Of a stretch of DNA of 64,000 bases, positions 35,054 through 49,860 are shown one piece after another. Source of the DNA: Curvibacter sp. GWA2_64_110 (GTDB taxonomy: Bacteria > Pseudomonadota > Gammaproteobacteria > Burkholderiales > Burkholderiaceae_C). How positions within the stretch are numbered: position 1 is the first letter of the stretch; each line of letters begins with the position of its first letter. The stretch is taken from positions 1 through 64,000 of the forward strand of contig MGPC01000024.1 in assembly GCA_001797315.1 (NCBI GenBank). The letters run 5' to 3'. The notes beneath the pieces were generated by a model that saw nothing but the letters and a program-made list of their open reading frames with translations, was not told the origin of the DNA and did no database searches. The position numbers were made by a program, and so were the translations under genes.

Positions 35054-36010
35054 ATGGCCCAACCCGACACCCTGCTGCGCACCCGGCCCATTGCCGTGGG
35101 CCAGCTGCGCGCCTTCGAAGCCGTGGCGCGGCACCTCAACTTCCGCGCCGCGTCGGAAGAACTGGCGCTGACGCAAAGCGCCGTCAGCCGGCAGATCCAG
35201 GCACTGGAAGACGAGGTCGGCGTCAGCCTGTTCCTGCGCCACACCCGCGCGGTGGAACTCACCGCCGCCGGCGTGCAGCTGCTGCAGGCGGTGCTGCCCT
35301 CGCTGGAGCGCATGGACAGCGCGGTGCGGCAGATTCGCCGCAGCGCCGGGCGCAAGAGCGTGGCCATCAGCACCTGGGCCTCATTTGCCTCCATGTGGCT
35401 CATCCCGCGGCTGGAGGCCTTCCAGAGCCAGCACCCCGACATCGACATCCGCATCGACGCCTCGGATGCGATGGTGGACCTGGACACCGCCGACGTCGAC
35501 CTGGCGCTGCGCGCCACCCAGGCCAGCAACGTGCCCGCGCACGCCGTGCGCCTGTTCGGCGAACAGCTCACGCCCGTGGTCAGCCCCTGGCTGCTGAAAA
35601 ACGGACGCGCCCTGCAACGCGGCGAAGACCTGGCGCACTTCACGCTGATCGAAGCCAACGAAGCGCAGCACAGCCAGCCCATGGACTGGCTGACCTGGCG
35701 CCACTGGCTCAAGGTCTACCGCCTCAAGAAGCTGGAACCCAAACGCTGGCTCTACTTCGGCTACGCCTACCAGATCGCCCAGGCTGCGCTGGCCGGGCAG
35801 GGTGTGGCGCTCACCCGCATGCCGCTGGTGGCCGACAGCCTGGCATCCGGCGACCTGGTGGAAGTGCTGCCCGGCATGCGCCTGGACTCACCCATGGCCT
35901 ACTGGCTCATCGTCGCCCCGCACAGCCAGGCGCGGCCGGAAGTGCAGGCGTTTTGCGACTGGTTGCAGGGGCAGGCGGCGGGGACGCGGAGGGCGATTGG
36001 GGAGGCGTAG
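35054..36010 (+). CDS. LysR family transcriptional regulator (GcvA-like)
   Basis: 318 residues. N-terminal winged helix RAFEAVARHLNFRAASEELA followed by LTQSAVSRQIQALEDEVGVS, then a substrate-binding domain in GcvA style (ISTWASFASMWLIPRLEAFQ, DADVDLALRA). Divergent from the DUF2917 gene, which it probably regulates. It is the last ordinary gene before the defence island. Confidence 0.9.
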   Translation: MAQPDTLLRTRPIAVGQLRAFEAVARHLNFRAASEELALTQSAVSRQIQALEDEVGVSLFLRHTRAVELTAAGVQLLQAVLPSLERMDSAVRQIRRSAGRKSVAISTWASFASMWLIPRLEAFQSQHPDIDIRIDASDAMVDLDTADVDLALRATQASNVPAHAVRLFGEQLTPVVSPWLLKNGRALQRGEDLAHFTLIEANEAQHSQPMDWLTWRHWLKVYRLKKLEPKRWLYFGYAYQIAQAALAGQGVALTRMPLVADSLASGDLVEVLPGMRLDSPMAYWLIVAPHSQARPEVQAFCDWLQGQAAGTRRAIGEA

Positions 36011-36280
36011 ACATGCCAAATCAATGGCTGTTTTCGGCGAGGAGTTGACCTCTGGGTCGATTACGCGGACGACCGGTTCAGGCTGGAAGCCTTCACTTGA
36101 ACGGGTAGTGCCAACGACTGCCGCCATTAGTACCAGTCACTGAGCAGTGCACCGCTTAGTCAGTAGCTGCAGAAAGGCCGATGGCCGTTCAAGTATGAAA
36201 CCACCGTGGTTACAGGTGGAGCTCATGTGGCTTCGGGATTCTGCGCATTTGCTAACCTATGTGCTCAGGGAGTGAAAACC
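36011..36280. other. Left boundary of the defence island, no convincing gene
   Basis: 270 bases with lower GC and no recognised coding potential. Only short open frames are present and none has a ribosome binding site with recognisable product. The DUF2130 promoter should lie near 36230-36275. No integrase, tRNA or direct repeat was seen. Confidence 0.4.
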
Positions 36281-37690
36281 ATGAACGAAATAATTTGCCC
36301 ACATTGCGGTAAGGCTTTCAAGATTGATGAGGCTGGCTACGCCGACATCCTCAAACAGGTGCGCGACAGCGACTTCGAGCATCAGCTACACGAACGGCTG
36401 GAACTGGCCGAGCGGGACAAACAGAGCGCTGTGGAACTCGCCCGTGCCCAGCTGACGGCGGAGTTGCAGAAGCATGGTGCCGAGAGGGAAGCAGAAATCC
36501 AGCGGCTCAAGGCCCAGTTGGAGGCAGGGGATGTGGCCCGCCAACTGGCCGTGGTCCAGGCCTTGAGCGATATCGAGAAGCAGAGAGATACCCTAGCGAG
36601 CGAACTGGACAGAGCCCGCCAGGAGACCCAGGCGGTCCGGCAACTGGCCGAGGCCCAACGCATGGCCGACTTGCAGCAAACTGCGGCCAGCAAAGACAGT
36701 GAAATCCAGGGACTCAAGGCCCGGCTGGCCGAGGTGGAGTTGTCACAGAAACTCGCCATCACCGAGGCGCTGACCGCTGTCGAGAAGCAGCGCGACGAAC
36801 TGCAGGCCAGTCTGGCTCATGCCCGATTGGAAAAGCAGCTGGCCGAGACATCCCTCAAAGAGCGCTACGAAGTCCAGATCAAGGACCGCGATGACGCCAT
36901 CGAACGCCTGCGCGACATGAAGGCGCGCCTGTCCACCAAGATGGTAGGCGAAACGCTGGAGCAGCACTGCGAGACCGAGTTCAACCGTATCCGCGCCACC
37001 GCTTTCCCCCGAGCCTACTTCGAGAAAGACAACGACGCTAGCACCGGCAGCAAGGGCGACTACATCTTCCGCGACATTGATGAGCAGGGTACCGAAATCG
37101 TCTCGATCATGTTCGAGATGAAAAACGAGAGTGACACCACGGCGACCAAGAAGCGCAACGAGGATTTCCTGAAAGAGCTGGACAGGGACCGTACCGAAAA
37201 AAGCTGCGAATATGCGGTGCTGGTGTCGCTGCTGGAGCCTGACAGCGAGTTGTACAACACCGGCATCGTCGATGTGTTCCACCGCTACCCAAAAATGTAC
37301 GTGGTGCGTCCGCAGTTCTTCATCCCCATCATCACGCTGCTGCGCAACGCAGCGATGAACGCCGTCAAGTACAAGACGGAGCTCGCCCTGGTAAAAGCCC
37401 AGAACATCGACATCACCAACTTCGAGAACGAACTCGAAGGCTTCAAGGCGGCATTTGCCAAGAACTACGACCTGGCCTCACGACGATTCCAGACCGCGAT
37501 TGACGAGATCGACAAGTCCATCGACCACCTGCAGAAAACCAAGGATGCGCTCTTGGGCGCCGACCGCAACCTGCGCCTGGCCAATGACAAGGCCCAGGAC
37601 GTGACCATAAAGAAGCTCACTAAGGACAACCCGACCATGGCCGCCAAGTTCGCAGAACTCAAGAGTCCCGGCCCCTCGGCTGAGGGGTGA
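36281..37690 (+). CDS. DUF2130 domain protein (RmuC-like, PD-(D/E)XK nuclease-like)
   Basis: 469 residues. An N-terminal CPHCGK pair (C6/C9), a long coiled coil (about residues 30-220, with Glu/Gln/Leu-rich repeats), and a globular C-terminal part. Around residues 259-285 [20 protein letters not shown] is followed by EMKNES, giving a D..ExK arrangement as in PD-(D/E)XK folds. DUF2130 proteins are related to RmuC and occur in defence islands. AGGGAG supports ATG 36281. It lies 77 bases before the SIR2 gene on the same strand and may or may not be part of the same system. Confidence 0.82.
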
Positions 37691-37727
37691 ACGCTCAAGC
37701 TAACCGACAGCGTAGAATGGTTAATGA

Positions 37728-37750
37728 CCCGCCGCCATCGCAGCGGCGGG
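37728..37750 (+). promoter_or_regulatory. Hairpin in the leader of the SIR2-HerA operon
   Basis: CCCGCCGC (37728-37735), loop CATCGCA, GCGGCGGG (37743-37750): a perfect 8-bp GC stem. It is followed at once by a strong ribosome binding site GGAGGAG. There is no T-run, so it is not a simple terminator; it could insulate or control translation. A TAGAAT near 37713 may be a -10 box. Confidence 0.4.
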
Positions 37751-37767
37751 CGAGCGGAGGAGATTTG

Positions 37768-38994
37768 ATGTCGGTGAGCGTCCACAACCCGGACCAGTAC
37801 ATGGTCAGCCTGCGCCAGGTCATCGCGCAGGGTCGAAAGCGGATCGGTCTGTTGATCGGTGCCGGCGCACCAGCGGGGATCTTCCCGCCAGGCAGCACAA
37901 CCCCTCTCATCCCAGCCGTGGCCGGACTGACCACAATGGTCATCGACGCGCTGAAGAAGGACTATGAAAAGCCACTGGCCGCAGTGGTCGCCGAACTCGA
38001 TAACCCAAACATCGAAACGATCCTCTCGCGTGTTCGCACTCTCGGGTCGGTGCTGGGCAAGATGGAAATACACGGCCTGGACGGCGCCGGGTTCAAGAAG
38101 CTGAGCGAGTCGATTTGCGACCAGATCGGGCAGATCGTCAACAAACCGCTGCACGATGGCCCGTCACCGTACACGGAGTTCGTGTCTTGGATCAGCGGCA
38201 CGCCACGTGAGCACGCCGTGGAGGTCTTCACCACGAACTACGATCTGCTTTTCGAGCAGGCTTTCGAGCGGCTGCGTGTGCCCTTTTTCGATGGCTTTAG
38301 CGGATCGAGCAAGCCGTTTTTTGATCCTTCAACGGTCGCTGGGAATGACCTCCCAGCTCGTTGGACCCGGCTGTGGAAGTTGCACGGGTCTCTCGGCTGG
38401 TCGGCAAATGCCCGGGGGGAAGTCGTTCGCACGGGCAATGCCAACGCTACGCATCTGGTGTTCCCGGAGCACCTGAAATATGACCAGACGCAGAAGGCCC
38501 CCTACGCCGCCCTGTTCGACAGGCTCCGGGCCTTCCTCATGACTCCAGATACGCTGCTGATTGCGACCGGCTTCTCTTTCGCTGACGCGCACATCTCTGC
38601 TCGAATTGATGAGTGCTTGGCCGCCAACCCGTCGGCAAGCGTGTTTGCCTTTCAGTTCAAGCCTCTCGATCAGGAGATTTACGCGGCTGAGATCGCGGCC
38701 AGGCGAGCCAACATGAGCTTGTATTGCCCAGACAAGGCTGTAATCAATGGAATTGTCGCCCCGTGGGTTCCCGGCGACTTACCCACCCGCGAATGGGGTG
38801 CCATCCGCGCCACCTACTGGGGCACCGATCCAGCGACAAATACAAAGCGATTTGAGCTAGGTCGCTTTGACCGCCTAGCGCGCTTTTTCGCATCGTCACG
38901 AGCCAGCCAGCAGCACCAGCCCCTGCCTCCTCCGAGCGACTCTGGCGCTGCGCCGCCAGCCCCGGCAGACGCCCCGCAGCCGCCAGTCGCATGA
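37768..38994 (+). CDS. SIR2-like NADase-family protein of the SIR2-HerA defence module
   Basis: 408 residues. SIR2 Rossmann motifs: RIGLLIGAGAPAG near residues 25-37, FTTNYDLLFEQAF near 155 (the catalytic Asn in TNYD), KLHGSLGW near 205 (catalytic His), and TLLIATGFSFADAHI near 270. In known SIR2-HerA systems the SIR2 subunit depletes NAD+ or acts with HerA on DNA after phage entry. The C-terminal tail is Pro/Ala-rich. GGAGGAG precedes ATG 37768. It overlaps herA by four bases (ATGA). Confidence 0.88.
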   Translation: MSVSVHNPDQYMVSLRQVIAQGRKRIGLLIGAGAPAGIFPPGSTTPLIPAVAGLTTMVIDALKKDYEKPLAAVVAELDNPNIETILSRVRTLGSVLGKMEIHGLDGAGFKKLSESICDQIGQIVNKPLHDGPSPYTEFVSWISGTPREHAVEVFTTNYDLLFEQAFERLRVPFFDGFSGSSKPFFDPSTVAGNDLPARWTRLWKLHGSLGWSANARGEVVRTGNANATHLVFPEHLKYDQTQKAPYAALFDRLRAFLMTPDTLLIATGFSFADAHISARIDECLAANPSASVFAFQFKPLDQEIYAAEIAARRANMSLYCPDKAVINGIVAPWVPGDLPTREWGAIRATYWGTDPATNTKRFELGRFDRLARFFASSRASQQHQPLPPPSDSGAAPPAPADAPQPPVA

Positions 38995-41036
38995 ACATCA
39001 AGCCGACCTTGCTGGGGCACGTCGGCGCCGTTGCCGGCGCGGCGATCAGCGTCCGCCTTTCACCGAATGTCGCATCTGGCATCGCCATCATCGGCGGCAA
39101 GAGCTACCGCATTGGTCAAGTCGGCAGCTTCGTTCGGATACCGCAGGGTTATCACGATCTGTACGGGATCGTTGCCGAAGTTGGCGCTAATGCGGCGCCA
39201 GCAACCCCACAAGGGCAGCCCGAAGTGAGCGATCGGTGGATGACCATCCAACTGGTCGGCGAGATCGTTGGCACATCCTTTGAGCGAGGCATTAGCCAGT
39301 ACCCGAACGTTCGTGACGAGGTTCACCTGGTCACCGAAGAAGATCTGGCGGTGATCTACGGTACCCAGGACGGCGGTCAAGTGCTGATTGGTCGATTAGC
39401 AAGCGCTGAAGGAATCCCGGTACGGATCGACCTCGACAAGCTCGTGACACGTCATAGTGCAGTACTCGGCTCGACCGGCGCGGGCAAGTCAACCACGGTA
39501 TCCAGCCTCTTGCGGTCGATCGCATTAGGTGGCGATGCCGAGGCTGCACAGGGGTTTCCGAGCGCGCGCATCCTTCTGCTCGACATTCACGGGGAGTATG
39601 GACGGGCGCTGGAGTCGGTATCGACGGTCTTCAGGATCAATCCCAATGCCGGCGCTGGTGAACTGCCGCTGCACATCCCGTTCTGGGCACTGGACCCGGC
39701 TGAGTTGTTGGCTTTCCTCATGGGCAAGCTAGACGACAAACAGCTCACGCAGATCCTCGACAGGATCATGGACTACAAGGTCAAGGCGGTGAGCGCTCAG
39801 CCGGCTCCGGGTCTAGACGTCAATTCCATGACCGCCGACAGCCCGAGTCCCTACAGCTTGAAAAAGCTGTGGTCCGAACTCCTGGATCCCGAAGTCAGGA
39901 CTTGGCTGGACCAGCAGAGGTTGCAACCGGCCCTGGATGAGGCCGGCGACCCGCAAACGCTCAAAGCACCCAAGTACCGCCCTCACGGGGCCGGCTCCGC
40001 CGCTCCCTTCATCAACCAGGTCGGAGTCTTGGGCATACGCCGACAGCTGGACCAGATGCGGTCCCGCCTGCTTGACCGGCAATACGACTTTTTGCTCCAC
40101 CCCGGCGACTGGGAGCCCGACCTCGACAGCCAATCGTTGAAGGGGCTGCCAGAGCTTCTCGAAGCTTGGCTTGGACATAGCAAGCCCATCACAATCCTCG
40201 ACCTCTCCGGCATTCCCAGCCCGGTCGTGGCTCGACTCATCGGCGCGATCCTGAGGATCATCTACGAGGGTCTCTTCTGGGGACGAGACAAGAGCGAAGG
40301 CGGGATCGCTCGGCCGCTGCTGGTGGTCATGGAAGAAGCGCACCGATACCTGTCAAAGGACGCCGACGGGCCTGCGCGCGAGATGGTGCAGCGGATCGTT
40401 AAGGAAGGTCGCAAGTTCGGCATCGGAGCAATGGTCGTCAGCCAGCGCCCATCGGAAGTCGATGACACCATCCTGTCTCAATGCGGGACGTTCGTTGCTC
40501 TGCGCCTGTCCAACTCAGCTGACCGGACAAAAGTGCAGGCATCCCTACCTGACAACCTGGCTGGTGTGATTGACAGCCTGCCCGTCCTGCGCGTCGGTGA
40601 AGCCGTCATCACCGGCGAGGCGGCTCGCCTGCCTATTCGCTGCCGCATCACGCTACCGCGTGAGGAGCACCGACCCAACAGCGAGGACCCGGCCGTAGCC
40701 AAGCGATGGATGGGAGACCGACTCCCTGAAGACTACGGCCGGCTCGCCGCCTCTTGGCGGGCTCAGAGCCCGACCTGGACCACGCTGCGAGTCATCCGCA
40801 CGAAGCTACCCCAACAGGAGATAGAAGCAATGGAACGTGAACTGGTGGTCTCATCAAATGTTGTTTCGATCGGATATGAGCCGACGACCAGCACCCTTGA
40901 AGTCGAGTTCAAGAATGGCGTCTATCAGTACTACAACGTGCCTGACGCGATGTACCAGCAGCTGATGGCGGCTGCATCAAAGGGGCAATTCATAAACACC
41001 TACATCAAACCCGCATACCCATGCTCGCGAGTTTGA
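38991..41036 (+). CDS. HerA-like ATPase with C-terminal KTSC domain
   Basis: 681 residues. An N-terminal HAS-barrel-like beta region (to about 150) precedes Walker A AVLGSTGAGKSTTVSSLL near residue 160. LLLDIHGEYGRA follows, with Walker B LLVVMEEAHRYL near 444 and the arginine/sensor region VVSQRPSEVDDTILSQCGT near 483: the HerA/FtsK hexameric translocase pattern. From about residue 613 a second domain follows (SSNVVSIGYEPTTSTLEVEF, then YQYYNVPDAMYQQLM), which matches the KTSC domain. Partner of the overlapping SIR2 gene. The KTSC fusion is not part of the SIR2-HerA systems I know. Confidence 0.88.
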   Translation: MNIKPTLLGHVGAVAGAAISVRLSPNVASGIAIIGGKSYRIGQVGSFVRIPQGYHDLYGIVAEVGANAAPATPQGQPEVSDRWMTIQLVGEIVGTSFERGISQYPNVRDEVHLVTEEDLAVIYGTQDGGQVLIGRLASAEGIPVRIDLDKLVTRHSAVLGSTGAGKSTTVSSLLRSIALGGDAEAAQGFPSARILLLDIHGEYGRALESVSTVFRINPNAGAGELPLHIPFWALDPAELLAFLMGKLDDKQLTQILDRIMDYKVKAVSAQPAPGLDVNSMTADSPSPYSLKKLWSELLDPEVRTWLDQQRLQPALDEAGDPQTLKAPKYRPHGAGSAAPFINQVGVLGIRRQLDQMRSRLLDRQYDFLLHPGDWEPDLDSQSLKGLPELLEAWLGHSKPITILDLSGIPSPVVARLIGAILRIIYEGLFWGRDKSEGGIARPLLVVMEEAHRYLSKDADGPAREMVQRIVKEGRKFGIGAMVVSQRPSEVDDTILSQCGTFVALRLSNSADRTKVQASLPDNLAGVIDSLPVLRVGEAVITGEAARLPIRCRITLPREEHRPNSEDPAVAKRWMGDRLPEDYGRLAASWRAQSPTWTTLRVIRTKLPQQEIEAMERELVVSSNVVSIGYEPTTSTLEVEFKNGVYQYYNVPDAMYQQLMAAASKGQFINTYIKPAYPCSRV

Positions 41037-41255
41037 CCCACGCAAGCACCAGGACTGCCGAGACGTAGTGTGGCCGGTCGTGCGTAAGCGCCTGCCACTG
41101 TCGTCGGCTGTAATCGATGGCCCTGGCGGTCACCGAGCGGATCAGAAATTCGCGGGACTACACGCGGAGCTCAATGATGCGCCAAGGCACGAAGGACATT
41201 AGAGAGATCTGTTTTTTCTGTCAGCCGGTATCTGTTGCAATGAGGGTGACCCATC
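41037..41255. other. Gap between herA and jetA with a short open frame
   Basis: 219 bases. A frame without ATG runs across most of it, ending TAG at 41200-41202. From GTG 41068 it encodes 44 residues beginning VWPVVRKRLPLSSAVIDGPG. It could be the remnant of a small gene or a tail of a lost one; I do not recognise it. The jetA promoter must lie in the right part. Confidence 0.3.
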
Positions 41256-42725
41256 GTGAGCAAGTTTCTCGAGTCGGCATATAAGCTTCGCGAAGCGCGC
41301 CAGCAGGCCACCTGGCGCTTGCTTGCAGCCGACGACGCGCCGAGCGTGATGGCGATCCTCAAGAGCGTATCGGCCGGCGGCACGCGAACTCTCACCGATG
41401 CCGAGATCCATGAACAAGTCCGGCTACATCTCGAAGAACTGCGCTCAGACGGCGAGGACCTGAGGCAGGAGCCGAAGGACTACATCTCCCAGTGGGTGCT
41501 CAAGGGCTGGCTCAATCGCCGACTGATCGGCGAAAACGCCCAAGAAACGTACGAACTTTCTTCGGCAGCGCAGAGCGCCATCCGCATCATGGAGGATGCG
41601 AGTAGCCCCCGAAGCATGGCGACGGAAAGCCGCCTCGCCCTCATGATCCAGGTGGCTGCGCAGCTGGAGGCGGAGACGAACGCTAACGCCGCAGGCCAGA
41701 TTGACTTTCTCCGGGCCCGCTTCTATGAAGCTCAAGCTGCGCTGCAGCGGGCCACAAACGGTCAGATTCAGGTGCTGGACGACGCCAGGGCCGCGGAGCG
41801 CTTGCAGGATCTGGTCAGCCAGCTGCAAGAGATCACCGGAGACTTCACCCGCTTGAAAGAAGAGTTCTCGCACGTGGACCGGGCCTTTCGGCGCAAGCTG
41901 ATCGAAGGTGGCGAGTCGCGAGCGGAGATTCTCGACCGAGTGTTCTCCAGCCTCGAAATCTTAGAAGAAACCGAAGCCGGCAAGAGTTTCCTGGCGTTCT
42001 GGCGCCTGCTGACCACCCCATCGCAGTACGAGGCGCTCGAAAACGCCATTGACGGCCTGCTGCAGCGCGGATTCGCCAAGAACCTGACCCGCGAGCAGCG
42101 CCGATCGTTGCAGCGGCTGCAGGAAGGTCTCATGGCGGGCGCACGTAACGTTCACGGCACTCTTCACGGGCTGTCTCGAGGCTTGAAGGCGTTCGTCCAG
42201 AGCAAGGAATACCACGAACACCAGCGCATGCGAACCCTGCTGGCGGAGGCTCGCCAGCGGGCCCTCGCCGCAAACGAAGTCGTTTCCCTGACGGCGGAAA
42301 CCGGCGTCGAGCTCACCCTTCCCGAAGTCGAAATCTCTTCGATCAGCCAGTGGTCGCTCAAGGCGACGGAGGAGGGATTCCCCGGCTTTTCGCTGGACAA
42401 CGCCGCCGATCCCGAGATCAGCCTTGAGGAAATTGGCCGGCAGATGATGGCCGCCGAGATTGACATGGCCACGCTGGTGAGCAATATCAAGGATGCCTTA
42501 CAGAAGCGGTCGCAGGTTAGCATCGGCGAACTGTGCACCCTCTACCCGGTACACCAAGGCTTGGGCAGTGTCATCGGATACATGCACCTCGGGGCCCAGC
42601 ACGCGATCGAGGAGCTGCCTCCGCGGATGGAACAGGTGCGTTGGATAGACGGTAGCGGATCTCCGCGCAGCGCCCGCATCAGGGCGTCGTACTTCACGAA
42701 GGAAAAGCAGCATGAGTTCAGCTGA
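41256..42725 (+). CDS. jetA: Wadjet type I kleisin-like subunit JetA (DUF3375)
   Basis: 489 residues of the DUF3375 type, the length of type I JetA. Predominantly helical: the N-terminal winged-helix-like part (AYKLREARQQATWRLLAADD, APSVMAILKSV), a helical middle (about 130-260) and a C-terminal domain starting near 385. JetA is the MukF-like kleisin that connects JetB and JetC. Translation starts at GTG 41256 behind GAGGGT. It overlaps jetB by 14 bases. Confidence 0.93.
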   Translation: MSKFLESAYKLREARQQATWRLLAADDAPSVMAILKSVSAGGTRTLTDAEIHEQVRLHLEELRSDGEDLRQEPKDYISQWVLKGWLNRRLIGENAQETYELSSAAQSAIRIMEDASSPRSMATESRLALMIQVAAQLEAETNANAAGQIDFLRARFYEAQAALQRATNGQIQVLDDARAAERLQDLVSQLQEITGDFTRLKEEFSHVDRAFRRKLIEGGESRAEILDRVFSSLEILEETEAGKSFLAFWRLLTTPSQYEALENAIDGLLQRGFAKNLTREQRRSLQRLQEGLMAGARNVHGTLHGLSRGLKAFVQSKEYHEHQRMRTLLAEARQRALAANEVVSLTAETGVELTLPEVEISSISQWSLKATEEGFPGFSLDNAADPEISLEEIGRQMMAAEIDMATLVSNIKDALQKRSQVSIGELCTLYPVHQGLGSVIGYMHLGAQHAIEELPPRMEQVRWIDGSGSPRSARIRASYFTKEKQHEFS

Positions 42726-43449
42726 ATCCACGGCAGTTGACATCTACGCGAGCGCGCTCCAGTCGGACGTCGACGCCGCGGCCATGCTGAATGTAGACCG
42801 ATCGGATGCCGACGATCTGTTCAAGGGTGATCGCGGGGACATGCCCTTAGCCACCCGGAAGTTGCTGGCGCACCTGAAGCGCGGGCCGTTTCTCAGTGGT
42901 CGGCGCCAGCCGCAGATGTGGACCATCCTGCTTGCCAGTGAGGAACACATCCGGCAGCACCTGAACAACGAGATGCTGCAGCTGGTGATCGACTACGACC
43001 AGGAGCTGGCGATGGTGCGCCAGGTTGTCACCGAGCACTCGGACGTGCCGGTTCTCCTGCGCAGGCAAAAGCTCACCTTCATCGATTCTGTCATGCTGCT
43101 GCAGCTACGTGAGCGGGTTTTGGCTGCGTCTGTGGAGGGGGAGCCGGCCGTCATCACCCGCGAGGACCTGTTCGAGTACATGCGCCCGTTCCAGAAGCAC
43201 GTCGCGGATGACGTGAAATTCCGCAAGCGGTGCAATGCCGCTGTCGACAGGCTGGTCGTCGCCTCGGTGCTACTGCCCCTGCGCGGCAGCGAAGATCGCT
43301 TCGAGGTGTCGCCGATCCTGCGCATGATCTTCGGGGCCGAGGAAGTGGAAGCTGTTTCGCGAGCGTACGCCGCGATGGCGGCCGATGCTCAGGCCGTGAA
43401 AGAGCCGATGTTCGAAGACGACGGGGATGCCCCGCAGGGGCAGGACTGA
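42712..43449 (+). CDS. jetB: Wadjet subunit JetB (DUF4194, MukE-like)
   Basis: 245 residues. Contains two winged-helix-type segments (TRKLLAHLKRGPFLSGRRQP and DDVKFRKRCNAAVDRLVVAS, VLLPLRGSEDRFEVSPILRM) as in DUF4194/MukE-like KITE subunits. It binds the kleisin JetA. Overlaps jetA and lies two bases before jetC. The first Met (ATG 42712) is in the jetA 3' end. Confidence 0.9.
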   Translation: MSSAESTAVDIYASALQSDVDAAAMLNVDRSDADDLFKGDRGDMPLATRKLLAHLKRGPFLSGRRQPQMWTILLASEEHIRQHLNNEMLQLVIDYDQELAMVRQVVTEHSDVPVLLRRQKLTFIDSVMLLQLRERVLAASVEGEPAVITREDLFEYMRPFQKHVADDVKFRKRCNAAVDRLVVASVLLPLRGSEDRFEVSPILRMIFGAEEVEAVSRAYAAMAADAQAVKEPMFEDDGDAPQGQD

Positions 43450-43451
43450 CC

Positions 43452-46400
43452 ATGGACGCAGCAAATTTCACCCGCAGCCTGCTGCCGATGCAGATGGACG
43501 ACGCCCTGCGTTTCTATCTTTACGAGATCAAGCTGCACAACTGGGGCTTGTTCAACAGCACCAAGGTATTCCCGATCTCTCGCGAGGGGTACATCTTCGC
43601 TGGGCCGTCCGGCGCCGGAAAATCCACAGCGATGGACGCCCACGCCGCACTGCTCACCCCGCCGAACTGGGTCGCCTTCAACCAGGCGGCTCGCACGGAA
43701 CGTGGGGAAGACCGCTCGCTTGTCACGTACGTTCGCGGAACCTGGGGCGAAAAAACCAGCGAAAAGCAGGAGGTTTCAAGTCAGTGTCTTCGGCCGGACT
43801 CCACGTGGTCGGCGATAAGCGAGGCGTACCGGAACGATGTCGGCCACACGGTGACCCTGCTGCAGGTGTTCTGGATCAAGGGGCGCAGCAATGCGCATGC
43901 TGACCTGGGCCATGTCTTCTTTGTCTTCGAGCGCCCCTTTGATTTCGAAGAGCTGAAGCCGTTCGTCGAAGGCTCCTTCAAGAAGAGCGTGGCCGAGCAG
44001 CTCTGGCCGGGAACCCTGCTTGAGTCCTTCGAACGGTATCAGGAAAAGTTCAGACCGTTGCTGGGGATTCGGTCCAAGGCGACGCTGCGGCTGCTGCACA
44101 AGACGCAGTCCACCAAGGACATGGGCGATCTGAACTCATTCGTGCGCGACTTTATGCTGGAAGAGCCGGGCACTTTCGACCTGGCCAAGGCCTTGGTGGA
44201 GAGGTTCCAGGAGCTCGACTCCGCCTACAAGTCGGTGCTGGACGCCCAGGCGCAGATCGACACCTTGCAGCCGGTACGCACGAACCATTTCGAACATGAA
44301 GATGGCAAGGCGCAACAGGCCGACCACGATATGATCGTTAAAAGCGCCGACGCTTTCATGCACCAGCGCGAAGGCGCGCTCCTCACTGAGCGGCTGGAGG
44401 CTGTGAAGCGTGACCTCGTCGCCGATCAGCTCAACATCGAAGATGCGGCACGGGTCGCAGGCGACCGGCTTCGCGAGTTTGGAACCCTGAAGGAGCAGTA
44501 CTGGCAGATGGGTGGTGGCAAGGCTGACGATCTGCGCAAGCAGCGCGAGGAGTTGGTTACGGAAAATGGTCATCGCATCCGCCGGCGGGAGCGCTTCGAA
44601 GAAGACCTGCTGACACTGGAGGTCGAGATCCCGGACACGTACTCACCTGAGGAATTCCTGCGCTGCCAAGACGAGGCAGCCAAAGTGGACCAGGCCTTGC
44701 GCGCGCAGGCGGACACGAGCGGCACCGTCATGCGCAACCTCGGGGCGCGCGAGGCCGCGCTGAAAGAAAAGCTGGAGCAGGCAGCGAGGGAAATCCGCGC
44801 CCTGGAGGCGCAGCGCGGCAACATTCCGTACCAGCTCACTGATCTGCGGGCGCTGCTCGCCGAGGAGTTAGGCATAAACGTCGCAAAGCTGCCGTTCGCC
44901 GGCGAGCTGATGCAAGTGAAGAAGTCTCAAGCGGCGGAGTGGAGCGGCGCCATCGAGCGCCTGCTTGGTGGCTTCGGGAAGACCATGCTCGTGGCTGACG
45001 AGGACATGCCTGCCGTGTCCAAGTGGGTGGATGATCGCCACCTTGGCCTGCGCCTGAAGTTCACGCGGGTTGTGCACCAGCAACCCGGCAACCAGAGCCA
45101 CCCGGCGCGCGCGGTCGTGCACAAGCTCGATTTCTCCGAATGTGAGCTGGAGGCGTGGCTTCGCGAGGAGGTCAAGCGGCTGTTCCCGCACGAGTGCGTT
45201 GACTCCATCGAAGAGCTCAAGAAGGTCCGCGCGGGCCTAACGCGAGCCGGCCAGATCAAGCGCAACACAGACCACGAGAAGAACGACCGCCGCGATATCT
45301 CTGATCGGCGCGAGTGGATCTTGGGCTTCAACAACGAGGAAAAGAAGCAGGAATTCCTCGCGGACCTGAACTCGCTGCTGGACCAGAAGAAGGTCCTGGA
45401 CGACGAAATCAACGACGAAAACGACCAGCGCAAGCTTTGGTCGGAAAAGGAGCGCGCCTGCGGGGCGATCAAGGAACTGGCTTGGCCGGACATCGATGCT
45501 GGCTCCATCACGGGCCAAATTCGAGCCACCGACGCGCTGCTGGACAAGATCGAGAACGAGAACCCGGACCTTGCGGTCGTCGAGCGCCAACTCGGCGAGG
45601 CCGATGAAGCGGTGAAAGCGGCCGACTCAGCCGTCAACGAGCTGAAGGTTCGCGCCGGCGTCCTCGACAGCCGCCGCAAGGACCTCATGGCCAAGCAAGC
45701 GGGCATGGACACTGTACTTTTGCAGCAGGTCGTCGGCGACGAAGCCAGCAAAGCTCTCGAAGCCCTTCTGGGCGAAGTGTTAGCCGCGACTACTAAGCTG
45801 GGACAGGAGTTCACGCTGGAGAACCTCAAGGACGTTCACCGGGCGGTCGACGCGAAGCTGGCCGAGCGCGGAGTCCAGCTGCGCCTGAGGCAGCAGCAGC
45901 GCGAGAACAACATGCTTTCGGTGATGCGCGCCTACCTCGAAAAGGACGTCTGGAGGGCGCAGATCGGTGGTGTCGACGCCTCGCTGGCCAGCTTGCCTGA
46001 CTTCCTCGCGCGCCTGAAGCTGATGGAGAACGACAACCTCCCAAAATTCAAGGATCGCTTCGAGAAGCTGCTCAACGACCAGGCGCTCCAGCACTTAGCT
46101 GCCCTATCGCAGCAGCTGCGCTCCGAAACGCGGTCGGTGCGCGAAAAGGTTGACTTGGTGAACGAGGCTCTCGGCACGACGGAATTCAACAAGGGCACGT
46201 ACATTAAGCTAGGCCACCGTGCTCGCCAGATTCCGGACGTCACCGATTTCGTCTCGGCCATGCGGGGCATCCTGGAGATGGTCGTTGACGATGCGGAGGT
46301 CAAGAAAGCGCGTTTCCTCCACCTGCGCAGGCTCGTGAACCGCCTAAGCAGCGGCGAGCCTCACGACGTACGCTGGCGCAAGCTGGTGCTGGACGTTCGG

Positions 46401-46892
46401 CAGCACCTGGAGTTCTACGCGATCGAAAGCGACGCGGCCGGCATGCAGGTGCAAACGTACAGTGGCAGCTCCGGCAAATCGGGCGGTGAGCGGCAGAAGC
46501 TAACCATGACGATCCTGGCTGCGGCCCTGCGTTACCAGCTATCCGGCGACGACGGCGATTTTCCGCGGTACAGCACGATCATGGTGGACGAGGCGTTCGA
46601 CAAGGCTGACCCCGAATTCACCAAGACGGCCATGCAGATCTTCAAGAAGTGCGGCTTTCAGGTGATCGCCGCCACTCCGATGAAGGGGATCATGGCGCTC
46701 GACGAGTTCATTGGCGGCGCTGCGTACATCTACAAGATTAAGAACCTCTCCCATGCCCGCCTGCTGGAGTATGACGTGCAGAAGCGCGAGTTGGTGATCC
46801 CAAAGGAAGTGCGTGCGCAAGTGGCCGCCGAAGATGCGCTGGCCGTGGCAACCAAGAAGCACGACGCCGATGGCCCGGAGGCCGTGAAGTGA
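43452..46892 (+). CDS. jetC: Wadjet SMC-like ATPase JetC
   Basis: 1146 residues, the MukB-like SMC of Wadjet. Walker A is FAGPSGAGKSTAMDAH at about residues 49-64. Long coiled coils on both sides of a hinge-like globular region near residues 455-560. The C-terminal ABC signature is SGKSGGERQKLTM (near 1006) and Walker B is STIMVDEAFDKAD (near 1041). With JetA and JetB it extrudes DNA loops to recognise small closed circles. The frame is open upstream to 43230, but ATG 43452, two bases after the jetB stop, fits the family N terminus. Confidence 0.94.
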   Translation: MDAANFTRSLLPMQMDDALRFYLYEIKLHNWGLFNSTKVFPISREGYIFAGPSGAGKSTAMDAHAALLTPPNWVAFNQAARTERGEDRSLVTYVRGTWGEKTSEKQEVSSQCLRPDSTWSAISEAYRNDVGHTVTLLQVFWIKGRSNAHADLGHVFFVFERPFDFEELKPFVEGSFKKSVAEQLWPGTLLESFERYQEKFRPLLGIRSKATLRLLHKTQSTKDMGDLNSFVRDFMLEEPGTFDLAKALVERFQELDSAYKSVLDAQAQIDTLQPVRTNHFEHEDGKAQQADHDMIVKSADAFMHQREGALLTERLEAVKRDLVADQLNIEDAARVAGDRLREFGTLKEQYWQMGGGKADDLRKQREELVTENGHRIRRRERFEEDLLTLEVEIPDTYSPEEFLRCQDEAAKVDQALRAQADTSGTVMRNLGAREAALKEKLEQAAREIRALEAQRGNIPYQLTDLRALLAEELGINVAKLPFAGELMQVKKSQAAEWSGAIERLLGGFGKTMLVADEDMPAVSKWVDDRHLGLRLKFTRVVHQQPGNQSHPARAVVHKLDFSECELEAWLREEVKRLFPHECVDSIEELKKVRAGLTRAGQIKRNTDHEKNDRRDISDRREWILGFNNEEKKQEFLADLNSLLDQKKVLDDEINDENDQRKLWSEKERACGAIKELAWPDIDAGSITGQIRATDALLDKIENENPDLAVVERQLGEADEAVKAADSAVNELKVRAGVLDSRRKDLMAKQAGMDTVLLQQVVGDEASKALEALLGEVLAATTKLGQEFTLENLKDVHRAVDAKLAERGVQLRLRQQQRENNMLSVMRAYLEKDVWRAQIGGVDASLASLPDFLARLKLMENDNLPKFKDRFEKLLNDQALQHLAALSQQLRSETRSVREKVDLVNEALGTTEFNKGTYIKLGHRARQIPDVTDFVSAMRGILEMVVDDAEVKKARFLHLRRLVNRLSSGEPHDVRWRKLVLDVRQHLEFYAIESDAAGMQVQTYSGSSGKSGGERQKLTMTILAAALRYQLSGDDGDFPRYSTIMVDEAFDKADPEFTKTAMQIFKKCGFQVIAATPMKGIMALDEFIGGAAYIYKIKNLSHARLLEYDVQKRELVIPKEVRAQVAAEDALAVATKKHDADGPEAVK

Positions 46893-46899
46893 TTTATTG

Positions 46900-48096
46900 A
46901 TGAGCAGCAAGACCATCAGTGACGCTCGCAAGGAGCTCGCGAATTTCTTTACGCGCCGGCGCGCTGATCTCTTCCAGGGCGAGGGCGAGTGGCCGATTTC
47001 TATTCGAATTTCTGTGCCGACGGAAGCGCAGGTGATGTCGAACGTCGCTGCGTACGAGAATTGGCGACGCGAATGGGAGCGCTACGAAGGGAGTGGCCAG
47101 GTGATCTGGCAGCAGCGGCAATGGCGGCGCATGGGACATCACCGTTTACCGCAAGTCCTTTCGATCTCTTCCCTTGTCGACCTCGTTGCCGAAGTCGGAG
47201 CCATGCAGCAGTGGACCCGGTACGATGCGCGACGCGCGGAACTGCTTTCGCGCTGGCCGCAGGTAGCAGCTAGTGGTTGGCTGCGCGCAAACGTTCAGTT
47301 GCTGATCGACATGCCGGATGACGATTTCGTTCGCTTGAAGGATGTGGTTGCGTGGGGCGAGCGGAGCGCTCCAGGGGGCTGCTACATGCGTGAGCTTCCC
47401 ATTAAGGGAGTCGACTCGAAATGGATCGAGCGGCGCAAAGGGGTCATCCTCGGCCTGTTGCGGGCGATTGGCATGGCGGCCCCGGCGACTTCCGAGCTCG
47501 AAGATGCACTGGGTCTGAAACGGATTCCGCAGCGTATACGCCTACGCCTGCTGTGCAATGAGCTCGCCATTCCCTTTGGGGGATTGAACGATTTCGAGAT
47601 ACCACTGGACCAGGCGCGCAGCCTGACGATCGCGCCGACCGTAGTCTGGATCGTCGAGAACCAGCCAACATTCCTTGCACTACCCCGTATGCATGGCGCC
47701 GTGGCGATCGCCGGAATGGGCCAGCGCGTTCGCCTGATTGAGACCTTGCCGTGGCTTCGGGAGGCGCGCCAAGTACTCTACTGGGGCGATCTCGACGCCT
47801 GGGGCTTCAGCTGCTTGAACACCGCTCGCAAGGCCTATCACAGCGTCGAGTCGATGCTGATGGACCGGCGCACTTGGAACGATCACATCGATCTGTGCGT
47901 AGACGAGGACGTGAAGGCGCCGCCAGACACCTCCGCGGATTTCCTGACAGCTGATGAGGCCGCCATGCTGGATTACATTCGTGAGCAGCGGTCGCTGGGC
48001 AAAGGACGGTCGAGGTTGGAGCAAGAGCGGATTTCTTGGCCGTATGCCCTTGCACGAATGCAAGATGCCCTCACGGCGAATCCGGCCGGCTGTTAG
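46900..48096 (+). CDS. jetD: Wadjet nuclease JetD (DUF3322/DUF2220, TOPRIM)
   Basis: 398 residues. N-terminal DUF3322 arm (WPISIRISVPTEAQVMSNVA) and a C-terminal DUF2220 TOPRIM nuclease domain. The acidic residues are in WIVENQPTFLA (Glu) and LYWGDLDAWGFSCLN (DxD). JetD cleaves plasmid DNA once the JetABC complex has stalled on a small circle. Start ATG 46900, seven bases after the jetC stop; TTG 46897 is an alternative. Complete and intact. Confidence 0.92.
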   Translation: MSSKTISDARKELANFFTRRRADLFQGEGEWPISIRISVPTEAQVMSNVAAYENWRREWERYEGSGQVIWQQRQWRRMGHHRLPQVLSISSLVDLVAEVGAMQQWTRYDARRAELLSRWPQVAASGWLRANVQLLIDMPDDDFVRLKDVVAWGERSAPGGCYMRELPIKGVDSKWIERRKGVILGLLRAIGMAAPATSELEDALGLKRIPQRIRLRLLCNELAIPFGGLNDFEIPLDQARSLTIAPTVVWIVENQPTFLALPRMHGAVAIAGMGQRVRLIETLPWLREARQVLYWGDLDAWGFSCLNTARKAYHSVESMLMDRRTWNDHIDLCVDEDVKAPPDTSADFLTADEAAMLDYIREQRSLGKGRSRLEQERISWPYALARMQDALTANPAGC

Positions 48097-48267
48097 GGCT
48101 GCGGTGCTGTAGTCGGGTGGACTCAATGACCGCATTGGAGCCGAGACCGTGAACTGGGCGCCCACCGGCGAGCGGTCGCAATCGCTGCGAAGTAGCCCCT
48201 CGGCCTGACGCAGCAAATACCCGCGACAGGTCGAAAGTAGACTCTCGAACGACAAGCGTTCGTCAAG
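48097..48267. other. Right boundary of the defence island, no gene seen
   Basis: 171 bases between jetD and a convergent kinase gene. No coding frame of interest. Base composition and short frames look like degenerate intergenic sequence. No direct repeat with the left boundary could be found by eye. Confidence 0.4.
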
Positions 48268-49860
48268 CTAGTCCGCGTGAATCCAGCCCACCGGCAACAC
48301 CGCCTCCCAATCCACCGGCTGGCTGGTGTCCACCTGCACCGCACACGCCAGTTCCTCCGCCGTCAACGGCTCGCGTGCCTTGAGCTGCCCCTCCAACACC
48401 GCCACATCAGCCTCTGAGGGATCCGCCCCCTTCGCAAGTCGGTGCAGCACACGCTGGCGCAACACCTCCACCGGCGCGTCCAGCGCCAGGATGCGGCAGG
48501 GCACGCCGAGCTCTTGCGCCAGCGCCATGAAGAGGTGGCGCTGTGCTGCCTTCAGGCAGGTGGCGTCCACCAGCACCGGCAGGCCGGCAAACAGCACGTC
48601 GCGCGCCAGCGCGGCCAGGCGCGCGTAGGTGCGCTGGCTGGCCTCGGGCGTGTAGATGCCGCCGGGCACCACGTCCGCACTTTTGGCCAATGCCGGCAGG
48701 CCGAACAGGCGCTTGCGTTCCACGTCGGCCTTCACGCGCACGATGCCCAGCCGTTCGATCAGCAGCTGGCTATGCCTGCTCTTGCCCGAGCCGGAGACGC
48801 CGCTGACCAGCCACAGCGCCACGGCGCGCGGTTCGATCAAGCGCGCGGCCAGCTGCAGGTACTTGTCCACCTCGTGGTGCGCGACGGCCTGCGCTGCCTC
48901 GCTGTTCGGCTGCGTCTGCAACTGCGCCCAGCGCAGCGCCGCCACCTTGGCGCGCACCATGGCGCGGTAGCACTGGTAGTAGGGCAGCAGCTGCAGCGCG
49001 CTGTAGTCGCCGGTCTGCTCCAGGTAGGCGTTGAGCAGGCGCCACGCATAGTCGGCGCGGCCATGGGCCTGCAGGTCCATCAGCACGAAGGCGAGGTCGG
49101 CCAGCACGTCGGTCCAGCGGAAAGCGGGGTTGAACTCGATGGCGTCGAACAGTTGCGGCGCGCCGTCGATCAGCACCAGGTTGTTGAGGTGCAGGTCGCC
49201 ATGGCATTCGCGCACCCAGCCTTGCGCGTGGCGCTGTGCCATCAGCGCGGCCAGCTGTTCGCCCTGCTGTTCACTCCAGCGCTGCACGGCTTGCAGCGTG
49301 GGCTGCAACGCGGTGCCGGCCACCACCGTCAACACGTCGGGGAAGTTGTGCGCCACCGCTTCGCGCATCGTCTCGGCCCGGCCCCAGGGGCTGTCAGTGC
49401 CGGCCACGGCGGCGCTGGCGTGGAAGGTGGCGATGTGGTGAGCCAGCTGGTCGATGTGGGCCGGCTGCAAGGCGCCACGCTGCGCCAGGTGGCTCAGCAG
49501 GTCGTCCTGCGCAAAGCGGCGCATGTGCACGGCCCAGTCCAGCACCGGGGTGTCCGCACCCACCTCTTCTGCGCGGATGAGGTGCGGCGCCTGCAGCGTG
49601 CCGGTGACGGCCACCACCCCGAGGTAGATGCCGGGCGCGGTGCGGCGGTTGATGCGCAGCTCTTCCTCGCAGGCGGCGCGGCGCAGGCCCAAGGTGCTGT
49701 AGTCCAGAAAGTCCAGCGCCAGCGGCTTCTTGAACTTGTAGACATGCTCGCCCGCCAGCAGCACCCAGGAGATGTGGGTTTCGATGCACTCGATGCCCGG
49801 CACCGCATGCGGGAAGGCCGCGGGCGTTTGCTGCAGTTGTGCGATGAGCGGGGCAGGCAT
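48268..49860 (-). CDS. Fused aminoglycoside phosphotransferase-like / P-loop kinase protein
   Basis: 530 residues. N-terminal 330 residues look like an APH/choline-kinase fold (VYKFKKPLALDFLDYSTLGL, catalytic CHGDLHLNNLVLIDG, and DAIEFNPAFRWTDVLADLAF). The C-terminal 190 residues hold an AAA/adenylate-kinase-like P-loop (VSGVSGSGKSRHSQLL). The two-domain protein is common in proteobacteria and its substrate is unknown. It converges on jetD, and the left side is the island end. Confidence 0.85.
   Translation of the reverse strand: MPAPLIAQLQQTPAAFPHAVPGIECIETHISWVLLAGEHVYKFKKPLALDFLDYSTLGLRRAACEEELRINRRTAPGIYLGVVAVTGTLQAPHLIRAEEVGADTPVLDWAVHMRRFAQDDLLSHLAQRGALQPAHIDQLAHHIATFHASAAVAGTDSPWGRAETMREAVAHNFPDVLTVVAGTALQPTLQAVQRWSEQQGEQLAALMAQRHAQGWVRECHGDLHLNNLVLIDGAPQLFDAIEFNPAFRWTDVLADLAFVLMDLQAHGRADYAWRLLNAYLEQTGDYSALQLLPYYQCYRAMVRAKVAALRWAQLQTQPNSEAAQAVAHHEVDKYLQLAARLIEPRAVALWLVSGVSGSGKSRHSQLLIERLGIVRVKADVERKRLFGLPALAKSADVVPGGIYTPEASQRTYARLAALARDVLFAGLPVLVDATCLKAAQRHLFMALAQELGVPCRILALDAPVEVLRQRVLHRLAKGADPSEADVAVLEGQLKAREPLTAEELACAVQVDTSQPVDWEAVLPVGWIHAD

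What the first reader, a model, noticed from the sequence alone, without database searches (positions are those of the whole stretch)
36281..48096. Composite defence island: DUF2130 + SIR2-HerA(KTSC) + complete type I Wadjet
Seen: seven intact, same-strand genes between an ordinary LysR gene and a convergent kinase gene, with tight overlaps inside each module. Known: SIR2-HerA acts on phage infection and Wadjet cleaves small circular DNA. Inference: the three modules together would cover phage and plasmids, and the DUF2130 nuclease-like protein may be an additional partner. No integrase was seen, so the island may have been acquired by recombination.
Basis: partly seen in the sequence, partly recalled or inferred. 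Interest (0 to 1): 0.8.

Follow-up and report, generated by a model that had tools for sequence, protein, structure and literature searches.

The report
Stacked bacterial defence systems, ordinary parts
A foreign stretch of bacterial DNA carries two complete, known defence systems side by side (one expected to starve phage-infected cells of NAD, one expected to cut small circular DNA) plus a possible extra nuclease gene that recurs beside this and similar defence systems, which may or may not mean that they work together.

Summary
Confirmed: 36281-48096 holds seven intact same-strand genes at G+C 0.59-0.63 against 0.69-0.70 in the flanks: DUF2130; SIR2 + HerA-KTSC; type I Wadjet JetABCD. Probably not one system: Jet genes were found beside 0 of 33 other SIR2-HerA-KTSC loci. 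KTSC is a constant third part of this SIR2-HerA subtype: it follows HerA in 34 of 34 loci, fused in 7, separate in 27, and was not found in eight loci with other HerA or effector types; a fused relative is already solved (8wiv). DUF2130 is optional: near 4 of 32 HerA-selected relatives. It is the largest, but not the only, recurrent neighbour family of the 34 loci, and also sits directly before a DUF4297-HerA pair and directly after OLD-type nucleases. It has invariant D...ExK residues and a weak restriction-enzyme-like fold match, but its divergence does not track SIR2-HerA. Best reading: an acquired island at a variable site, with an NADase abortive system, an independent anti-plasmid system and a swappable nuclease candidate. 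Modest novelty.

The parts
36281..37690 (+). DUF2130 protein (469 aa): N-terminal CPHC, long predicted coiled coil, core with invariant D260, E279, K281
   Evidence: Pfam PF09903 308 bits; D260, E279, K281 invariant in 11 sequences and in 43, window included in both; core model weakly matches BstEII and EcoT38I
37691..37767 (+). 77-nt gap between DUF2130 and the SIR2 ATG
37768..38994 (+). SIR2 NADase-type effector (408 aa); N157 in FTTNYD and H206 in KLHGS
   Evidence: Pfam SIR2_2, PADLOC SIR2 586 bits, PDB 8w9l relative, motif positions
38991..41036 (+). HerA ATPase with C-terminal KTSC (681 aa); Walker A 160-167, VVMEEAH 445-451
   Evidence: Pfam DUF87, HerA_C, KTSC; PADLOC HerA 514 bits; match to PDB 8wiv over residues 5-681; motifs
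40830..41033 (+). KTSC domain fused to HerA
   Evidence: Pfam PF13619; 34-locus comparison
41037..41255 (+). 219-nt gap separating SIR2-HerA from the Jet operon
41256..42725 (+). JetA (kleisin-like, DUF3375)
   Evidence: Pfam DUF3375 375 bits; PADLOC JetA1 471 bits
42712..43449 (+). JetB (DUF4194)
   Evidence: Pfam DUF4194 131 bits; PADLOC JetB1 213 bits
43452..46892 (+). JetC (SMC-type ATPase, 1146 aa), Walker A GPSGAGKS at 51
   Evidence: PADLOC JetC1 1059 bits; PDB JetC 8as8, 8dk2; no stop in frame; motif
46900..48096 (+). JetD (Toprim nuclease); E253 in IVEN, D297 and D299 in WGDLD
   Evidence: Pfam JetD_C, DUF3322; PADLOC JetD1 360 bits; alignment to MksG 8b7f; positions
36005..36280 (.). 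left edge of the island, about the LysR stop (36010)
   Evidence: alignments of seven LysR relatives end at window 35980-36007; G+C falls here
48097..48267 (.). right edge of the island, before the convergent kinase-like gene
   Evidence: alignments of five relatives start at window 48229-48293; G+C rises here

Best explanation
The stretch is an acquired defence island made of separable modules. (1) SIR2-HerA-KTSC: by the published picture for SIR2-HerA, HerA and SIR2 subunits form one large complex, and on infection SIR2 destroys NAD+ so that the phage cannot finish; KTSC is a standing part of this subtype and most likely a nucleic-acid-binding or regulatory element at the C-terminal end of HerA. 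(2) JetABCD: an independent type I Wadjet that, as for known ones, extrudes small circular DNA and cuts it with JetD. (3) DUF2130: a coiled-coil protein with a probable PD-(D/E)XK nuclease core, an optional gene that recurs next to effector-HerA pairs and OLD-type nucleases. Shown here: gene content, motifs, recurrence and non-recurrence of neighbours, variable site. Inferred: every activity, the role of KTSC, the nuclease activity of DUF2130, any contact between modules. This statement leaves open whether DUF2130 is a working partner or only a frequent neighbour; the first two rivals split that question.
For: Domain calls. SIR2 N157/H206, HerA Walker A/B and JetD acidic residues present. Relatives of HerA-KTSC and of SIR2 are solved and share PDB entries 8wld, 8woc, 8wod, 8wof. 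KTSC follows HerA in 34 of 34 loci. Jet genes beside 0 of 33 other SIR2-HerA-KTSC loci. DUF2130 near 4 of 32 HerA-selected relatives. Discordant identities: L107 DUF2130 91%, SIR2 51%, HerA 57%; no DUF2130 was found in the loci whose HerA is 82-88% identical (L021, L022, L029, L030). Island edges and absence in the genus sample. NADase dependence of a SIR2-HerA system in Vibrio cholerae: passages of PMC11559045. Wadjet mechanism: passages of PMC10586767.
Against: DUF2130 is the largest recurrent neighbour family in 34 loci, and the order DUF2130-SIR2-HerA-KTSC recurs in L076, L081 and L107, more than a loose pile would suggest. NCBIfam's curated anti-phage SIR2 and HerA models score far below their cut-offs (60.6 of 500, 214.3 of 850 bits), so function is carried over by distant homology. 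Several compared contigs are short (L023 6.4 kb; L028, L030 and L077 end soon after HerA), so neighbours there are partly unseen.
Confidence: 0.78

Rival explanations
1. DUF2130 is a true additional subunit: a coiled-coil nuclease fed by or docked on the HerA ring, making a four-part DUF2130-SIR2-HerA-KTSC system, with the same protein reused by DUF4297-HerA and OLD-type systems.
For: Same order and strand in the window, L076, L081, L107 and before DUF4297-HerA in L189 (35-nt gap); two DUF2130 subfamilies both found beside SIR2-HerA-KTSC. Invariant D...ExK and a weak fold match to BstEII/EcoT38I.
Against: Not found in 28 of 32 HerA-selected relatives; its divergence does not follow SIR2-HerA; downstream of KTSC in L031, and 1.5 kb downstream with an AbiEi gene between in L093; 37 of 42 DUF2130 loci have no HerA in the stretch held; three other DUF4297 loci lack it; other families recur beside SIR2-HerA-KTSC too (L027/L085/L089; L031/L080).
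Confidence: 0.27
2. DUF2130 is a stand-alone island gene that lands next to other defence genes because islands cluster.
For: Its neighbours are varied: Fic, AAA_13, OLD-TOPRIM, HD-CE, CHAT, TrlF, and ordinary genes such as gyrB, GGDEF and amidase. Other gene families recur beside SIR2-HerA-KTSC in a similar way.
Against: Seven near-contiguous OLD-DUF2130 pairs and the repeated effector-HerA adjacency look like preferred partners.
Confidence: 0.57
3. All three modules form one integrated system against both phages and plasmids.
For: One strand, no gene between them, no promoter match in the gaps (the scan is weak evidence).
Against: Jet beside 0 of 33 other SIR2-HerA-KTSC loci; 219-nt gap; SIR2-HerA-KTSC and JetABCD each complete on their own.
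Confidence: 0.03

Closest known systems
SIR2-HerA (Nezha) anti-phage system
   Same: SIR2 NADase-type effector overlapping a HerA ATPase gene; catalytic N and H present; PADLOC SIR2 and HerA models match strongly
   Different: Carries KTSC; far below NCBIfam's anti-phage SIR2/HerA cut-offs; lower-identity SIR2-HerA loci L126, L135, L136 and L138 show no KTSC by a profile search of all six frames
Solved HerA-KTSC and SIR2 proteins, PDB 8wiv, 8w9l, 8wld, 8woc and others
   Same: HerA aligns over residues 5-681 including the KTSC end (E 5e-181); SIR2 8w9l E 8e-77
   Different: Sequence is clearly diverged; the organism and the paper were not seen here (of 11 papers holding one of six entry codes as a string, the 10 listed are unrelated by title)
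HerA-DUF4297 (nuclease-HerA) system
   Same: Effector-HerA layout; one such pair (L189) also has DUF2130 directly upstream
   Different: Effector is DUF4297, not SIR2; no KTSC found in L189, L193, L194
Wadjet type I (JetABCD)
   Same: Gene order, all four families, Toprim acidic residues, JetC Walker A
   Different: Nothing notable beyond divergence; the next JetD in a 200-genome family sample is 38% identical
HerA-KTSC-endoDNase neighbourhoods noted in PMC9503650
   Same: HerA coupled to a KTSC gene is already mentioned (one passage read)
   Different: [quoted passage not shown] here SIR2 is kept and KTSC follows HerA in 34 of 34 loci

Membership tests
Wadjet type I | Four adjacent genes JetA-JetB-JetC-JetD | tested here: met
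Wadjet type I | Best matches to PADLOC type I models | tested here: met
   JetA1, JetB1, JetC1, JetD1 are the best hits
Wadjet type I | JetD Toprim acidic residues and JetC Walker A | tested here: met
Wadjet type I | Cleaves small circular DNA | not testable with these tools
   needs an assay
SIR2-HerA | SIR2 effector gene coupled to a HerA ATPase gene | tested here: met
   4-nt overlap
SIR2-HerA | Catalytic N and H of the SIR2 NADase | tested here: met
   N157, H206; residue types as named in PMC11559045
SIR2-HerA | NCBIfam anti-phage equivalog cut-offs (NF042942, NF042944) | tested here: not met
   60.6 of 500 and 214.3 of 850 bits: outside NCBI's narrow type, so described as the KTSC subtype
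SIR2-HerA | NAD+ depletion on infection | not testable with these tools
   needs an assay
SIR2-HerA-KTSC subtype (as delimited here) | KTSC directly after or fused to HerA | tested here: met
   34 of 34 loci; absent in 8 loci of other HerA or effector types
PD-(D/E)XK nuclease (DUF2130) | Conserved D...(E)xK on neighbouring strands of an alpha-beta core | tested here: inconclusive
   D260, E279, K281 invariant and on strands 2 and 3 of a core model of pLDDT 69.6; best Foldseek hits BstEII E 4e-3 and EcoT38I E 2e-2, none below 1e-3

The most novel reading that the evidence does not exclude
DUF2130 is an unrecognised nuclease subunit shared by several ATPase-driven defence systems: it plugs into effector-HerA rings (SIR2-HerA-KTSC, DUF4297-HerA) and OLD-type nucleases, adding DNA cutting or DNA-end sensing by way of its long coiled coil, so the window carries a four-part DUF2130-SIR2-HerA-KTSC machine that current catalogues annotate as two genes.
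Probability: 0.23. Interest if true: 0.65.

Novelty: new variant of a known kind. Interest (0 to 1): 0.4.

Why it matters
The Wadjet and SIR2-HerA parts are known kinds. Useful additions: KTSC is a fixed part of one SIR2-HerA subtype, found from proteobacteria to a haloarchaeal plasmid, so constructs cloned without a separate KTSC gene may be incomplete; and DUF2130, for which the window protein has no match in PADLOC or NCBIfam, becomes a concrete candidate defence nuclease with testable partners.

Tried and rejected
One integrated three-module system: rejected on the neighbour survey. A tRNA-borne or integrase-bearing island: no tRNA in the window and none of the seven genes is an integrase by Pfam. 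KTSC as a chance fusion: rejected. A phage origin of SIR2-HerA-KTSC: the viral-contig scan with HerA confirmed no relative, and the phage collection gave 3 records at E 1e-10, one a terminase-annotated match and two a KTSC of one phage. KTSC tree: too short for firm placement; used only as a lead. Promoter scan: 0 found against 2.2 in shuffles, uninformative. My own DUF2130 profile missed L076 and L093, which Pfam and direct queries confirm; the counts use the corrected set. Full-length DUF2130 model was too poor (pTM 0.25); its fold search gave nothing at E 1e-3; a core model was used instead. One search translated JetC in a wrong frame; one search checks the right one. Papers: of DUF2130 by name, three papers (listing only, unrelated by title); of its accession or COG number, two (listing only). 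HerA with KTSC: two papers, passages read in both; one calls KTSC DNA-binding, the other RNA-binding, so its ligand is open. In this check I withdrew the claim that DUF2130 is the only neighbour family shared by divergent HerA lineages (one search shows others) and lowered the subunit odds from 0.30 to 0.27 and the novel case from 0.25 to 0.23.
Full report
Observation. The window holds the seven genes described, same strand, intact, between LysR (35054-36010) and a convergent gene with AAA_33 (48268-49860). Gene G+C is 0.588-0.629 against 0.698 left and 0.686 right, a step at both ends.

Module 1, SIR2-HerA-KTSC. Pfam and PADLOC identify SIR2 and HerA clearly. SIR2 keeps N157 and H206, HerA its Walker A and B. 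PDB 8wiv aligns with HerA over residues 5-681 including KTSC, and SIR2 8w9l shares PDB entries with it. NCBIfam's narrow anti-phage models are not reached, so this is a different subtype from the one NCBI names. Loci were gathered by HerA: 10 from genome contigs, regions of sampled genomes and 11 plasmid regions (11 of the 73 plasmid records matched, chosen for spread), plus L107 found through DUF2130. L075 was dropped because it matches L029 in contig length and identities; 34 distinct loci remain, window included. KTSC follows HerA in 34 of 34: fused in 7 (window, L021, L022, L023, L029, L030, L074) and separate in 27 (in L091 and L094 also by Pfam). L029's HerA is split over two frames. As a control, a six-frame profile search finds no KTSC in five loci with other HerA types (L126, L135, L136, L137, L138) or in three DUF4297-HerA loci (L189, L193, L194), while the positive control L090 is found (L192, a DUF4297 gene without HerA annotated, has none either). 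A HerA-KTSC link is already in print in one passage of PMC9503650. By passages of PMC11559045, a Vibrio cholerae SIR2-HerA blocks phages through its NADase; the same action is inferred here. The role of KTSC is open: one paper passage calls it DNA-binding, another RNA-binding.

Frequency. HerA of this type (E at most 1e-80) was found in 6 of 399 genomes of the order and 8 of 398 of the phylum, the window genome included in both. In the 25 other genomes of the genus the best HerA match was E 1.6e-6.

Module 2, Wadjet. All four Jet genes match type I PADLOC models best, JetC matches solved JetC, and JetD keeps E253, D297 and D299 against MksG. The mechanism is taken from passages of PMC10586767. 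JetD at E at most 1e-60 occurs in 6 of 200 family genomes, window included, the next best 38% identical, and in no plasmid record at that limit. Jet genes at E 1e-4 were found in the window only, 0 of the 33 other loci. Some of those stretches are short, so neighbours there are partly unseen.

Module 3, DUF2130. Of 32 HerA-selected relatives, 4 have DUF2130 nearby: L031, L076, L081, L093. A profile of my own missed L076 and L093; they belong to a second DUF2130 subfamily. Selected the other way, 47 of 299 family genomes have DUF2130. Of these, 42 were examined (40 fetched, the window and L031); 5 were not. HerA of the broad type lies in the stretch held in 5 of 42: window, L031, L107, L126, L135, the last two with another SIR2-HerA type. 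The 16 viral loci had none. Among the two nearest ORFs on each side of the 34 loci, DUF2130 makes the largest family (5: window, L031, L076, L081, L107). It is not the only recurrent one: one family of 4 joins close relatives (L021, L022, L030, L075), one of 3 joins L027, L085 and L089 (a RecB-like nuclease or helicase by the annotation of L085 and L089), and pairs join L031/L080 and L082/L083. In the phylum sample without the window, DUF2130 is in 30 of 397 (over the cut-off), HerA in 7, both in 3, adjacent in 2 (in the third, G1046, they are on different contigs). Random placement expects 0.0017 adjacent; with 100-fold clustering P for 2 or more is about 0.013 (assuming one copy and 3500 genes). 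DUF2130 also sits 35 nt before a DUF4297-HerA pair in a Paraburkholderia plasmid, while three other DUF4297 loci of the 7 matched have none. It lies right after OLD-type nucleases in L098, L115, L121, L171, L172, L175 and L187. Other neighbours are varied.

Against co-evolution: the L107 DUF2130 is 91% identical while its SIR2 and HerA are 51% and 57%; the four loci with the most similar HerA have no DUF2130 found. So DUF2130 moves on its own, whatever it does.

DUF2130 chemistry. D260, E279 and K281 are invariant in 11 aligned sequences and in 43, the window included in both. The core model (pLDDT 69.6, pTM 0.65) runs helix, three strands, helix, strand, with D260 on strand 2 and E279/K281 on strand 3, as recalled for PD-(D/E)XK cores. 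Its two best PDB matches are the restriction enzymes BstEII and EcoT38I, E 4e-3 and 2e-2, with none below 1e-3. This supports, and does not prove, a nuclease.

Site. In five relatives that keep the kinase-like gene, alignment to the window starts at 48229-48293, and in G002 other genes stand between the left neighbour region and that gene. In seven relatives that keep LysR, alignment ends at 35980-36007, and the sequence after it matches other parts of the window, around 32.3 kb and in most of them 54.2 kb. The place is therefore variable, and the island most simply a gain there; no integrase among the seven genes and no flanking repeat were found.

Verdict. Real, well described, made of known systems; one regular extra part (KTSC) and one recurrent optional neighbour (DUF2130) are the points worth following.

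Noticed in passing
L084:4001-4213 (Caulobacter phage Seuss): A free KTSC protein, 59-61% identical to the KTSC end of the window's HerA, lies a few genes after rIIA and rIIB; the next best phage in the listing is 51%. A possible mimic or trigger of SIR2-HerA-KTSC; tree placement is unresolved.
   Followed up: partly
L098, L115, L121, L171, L172, L175, L187: An OLD-type ATPase/TOPRIM gene ends 0-60 nt before DUF2130 (or its match) on the same strand, a candidate two-gene unit.
   Followed up: partly
L091:7759-8851 (Natrinema plasmid): SIR2-HerA-KTSC in a haloarchaeon, followed by two pieces annotated as ADP-ribosylglycohydrolase.
   Followed up: no
L088:4734-8030 (E. coli C5 plasmid): This SIR2-HerA-KTSC DNA matches only its own record among 5,426 E. 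coli genomes in near mode, so it is rare there.
   Followed up: yes
L188:1093-4963 (Lactococcus plasmid): DUF2130 directly before a TrlF-family ATPase; 13 Lactococcus plasmid records match DUF2130 at E 1e-60.
   Followed up: no
L029/L075 HerA: The HerA reading frame changes near residue 309, so that copy may be inactive or misassembled.
   Followed up: no
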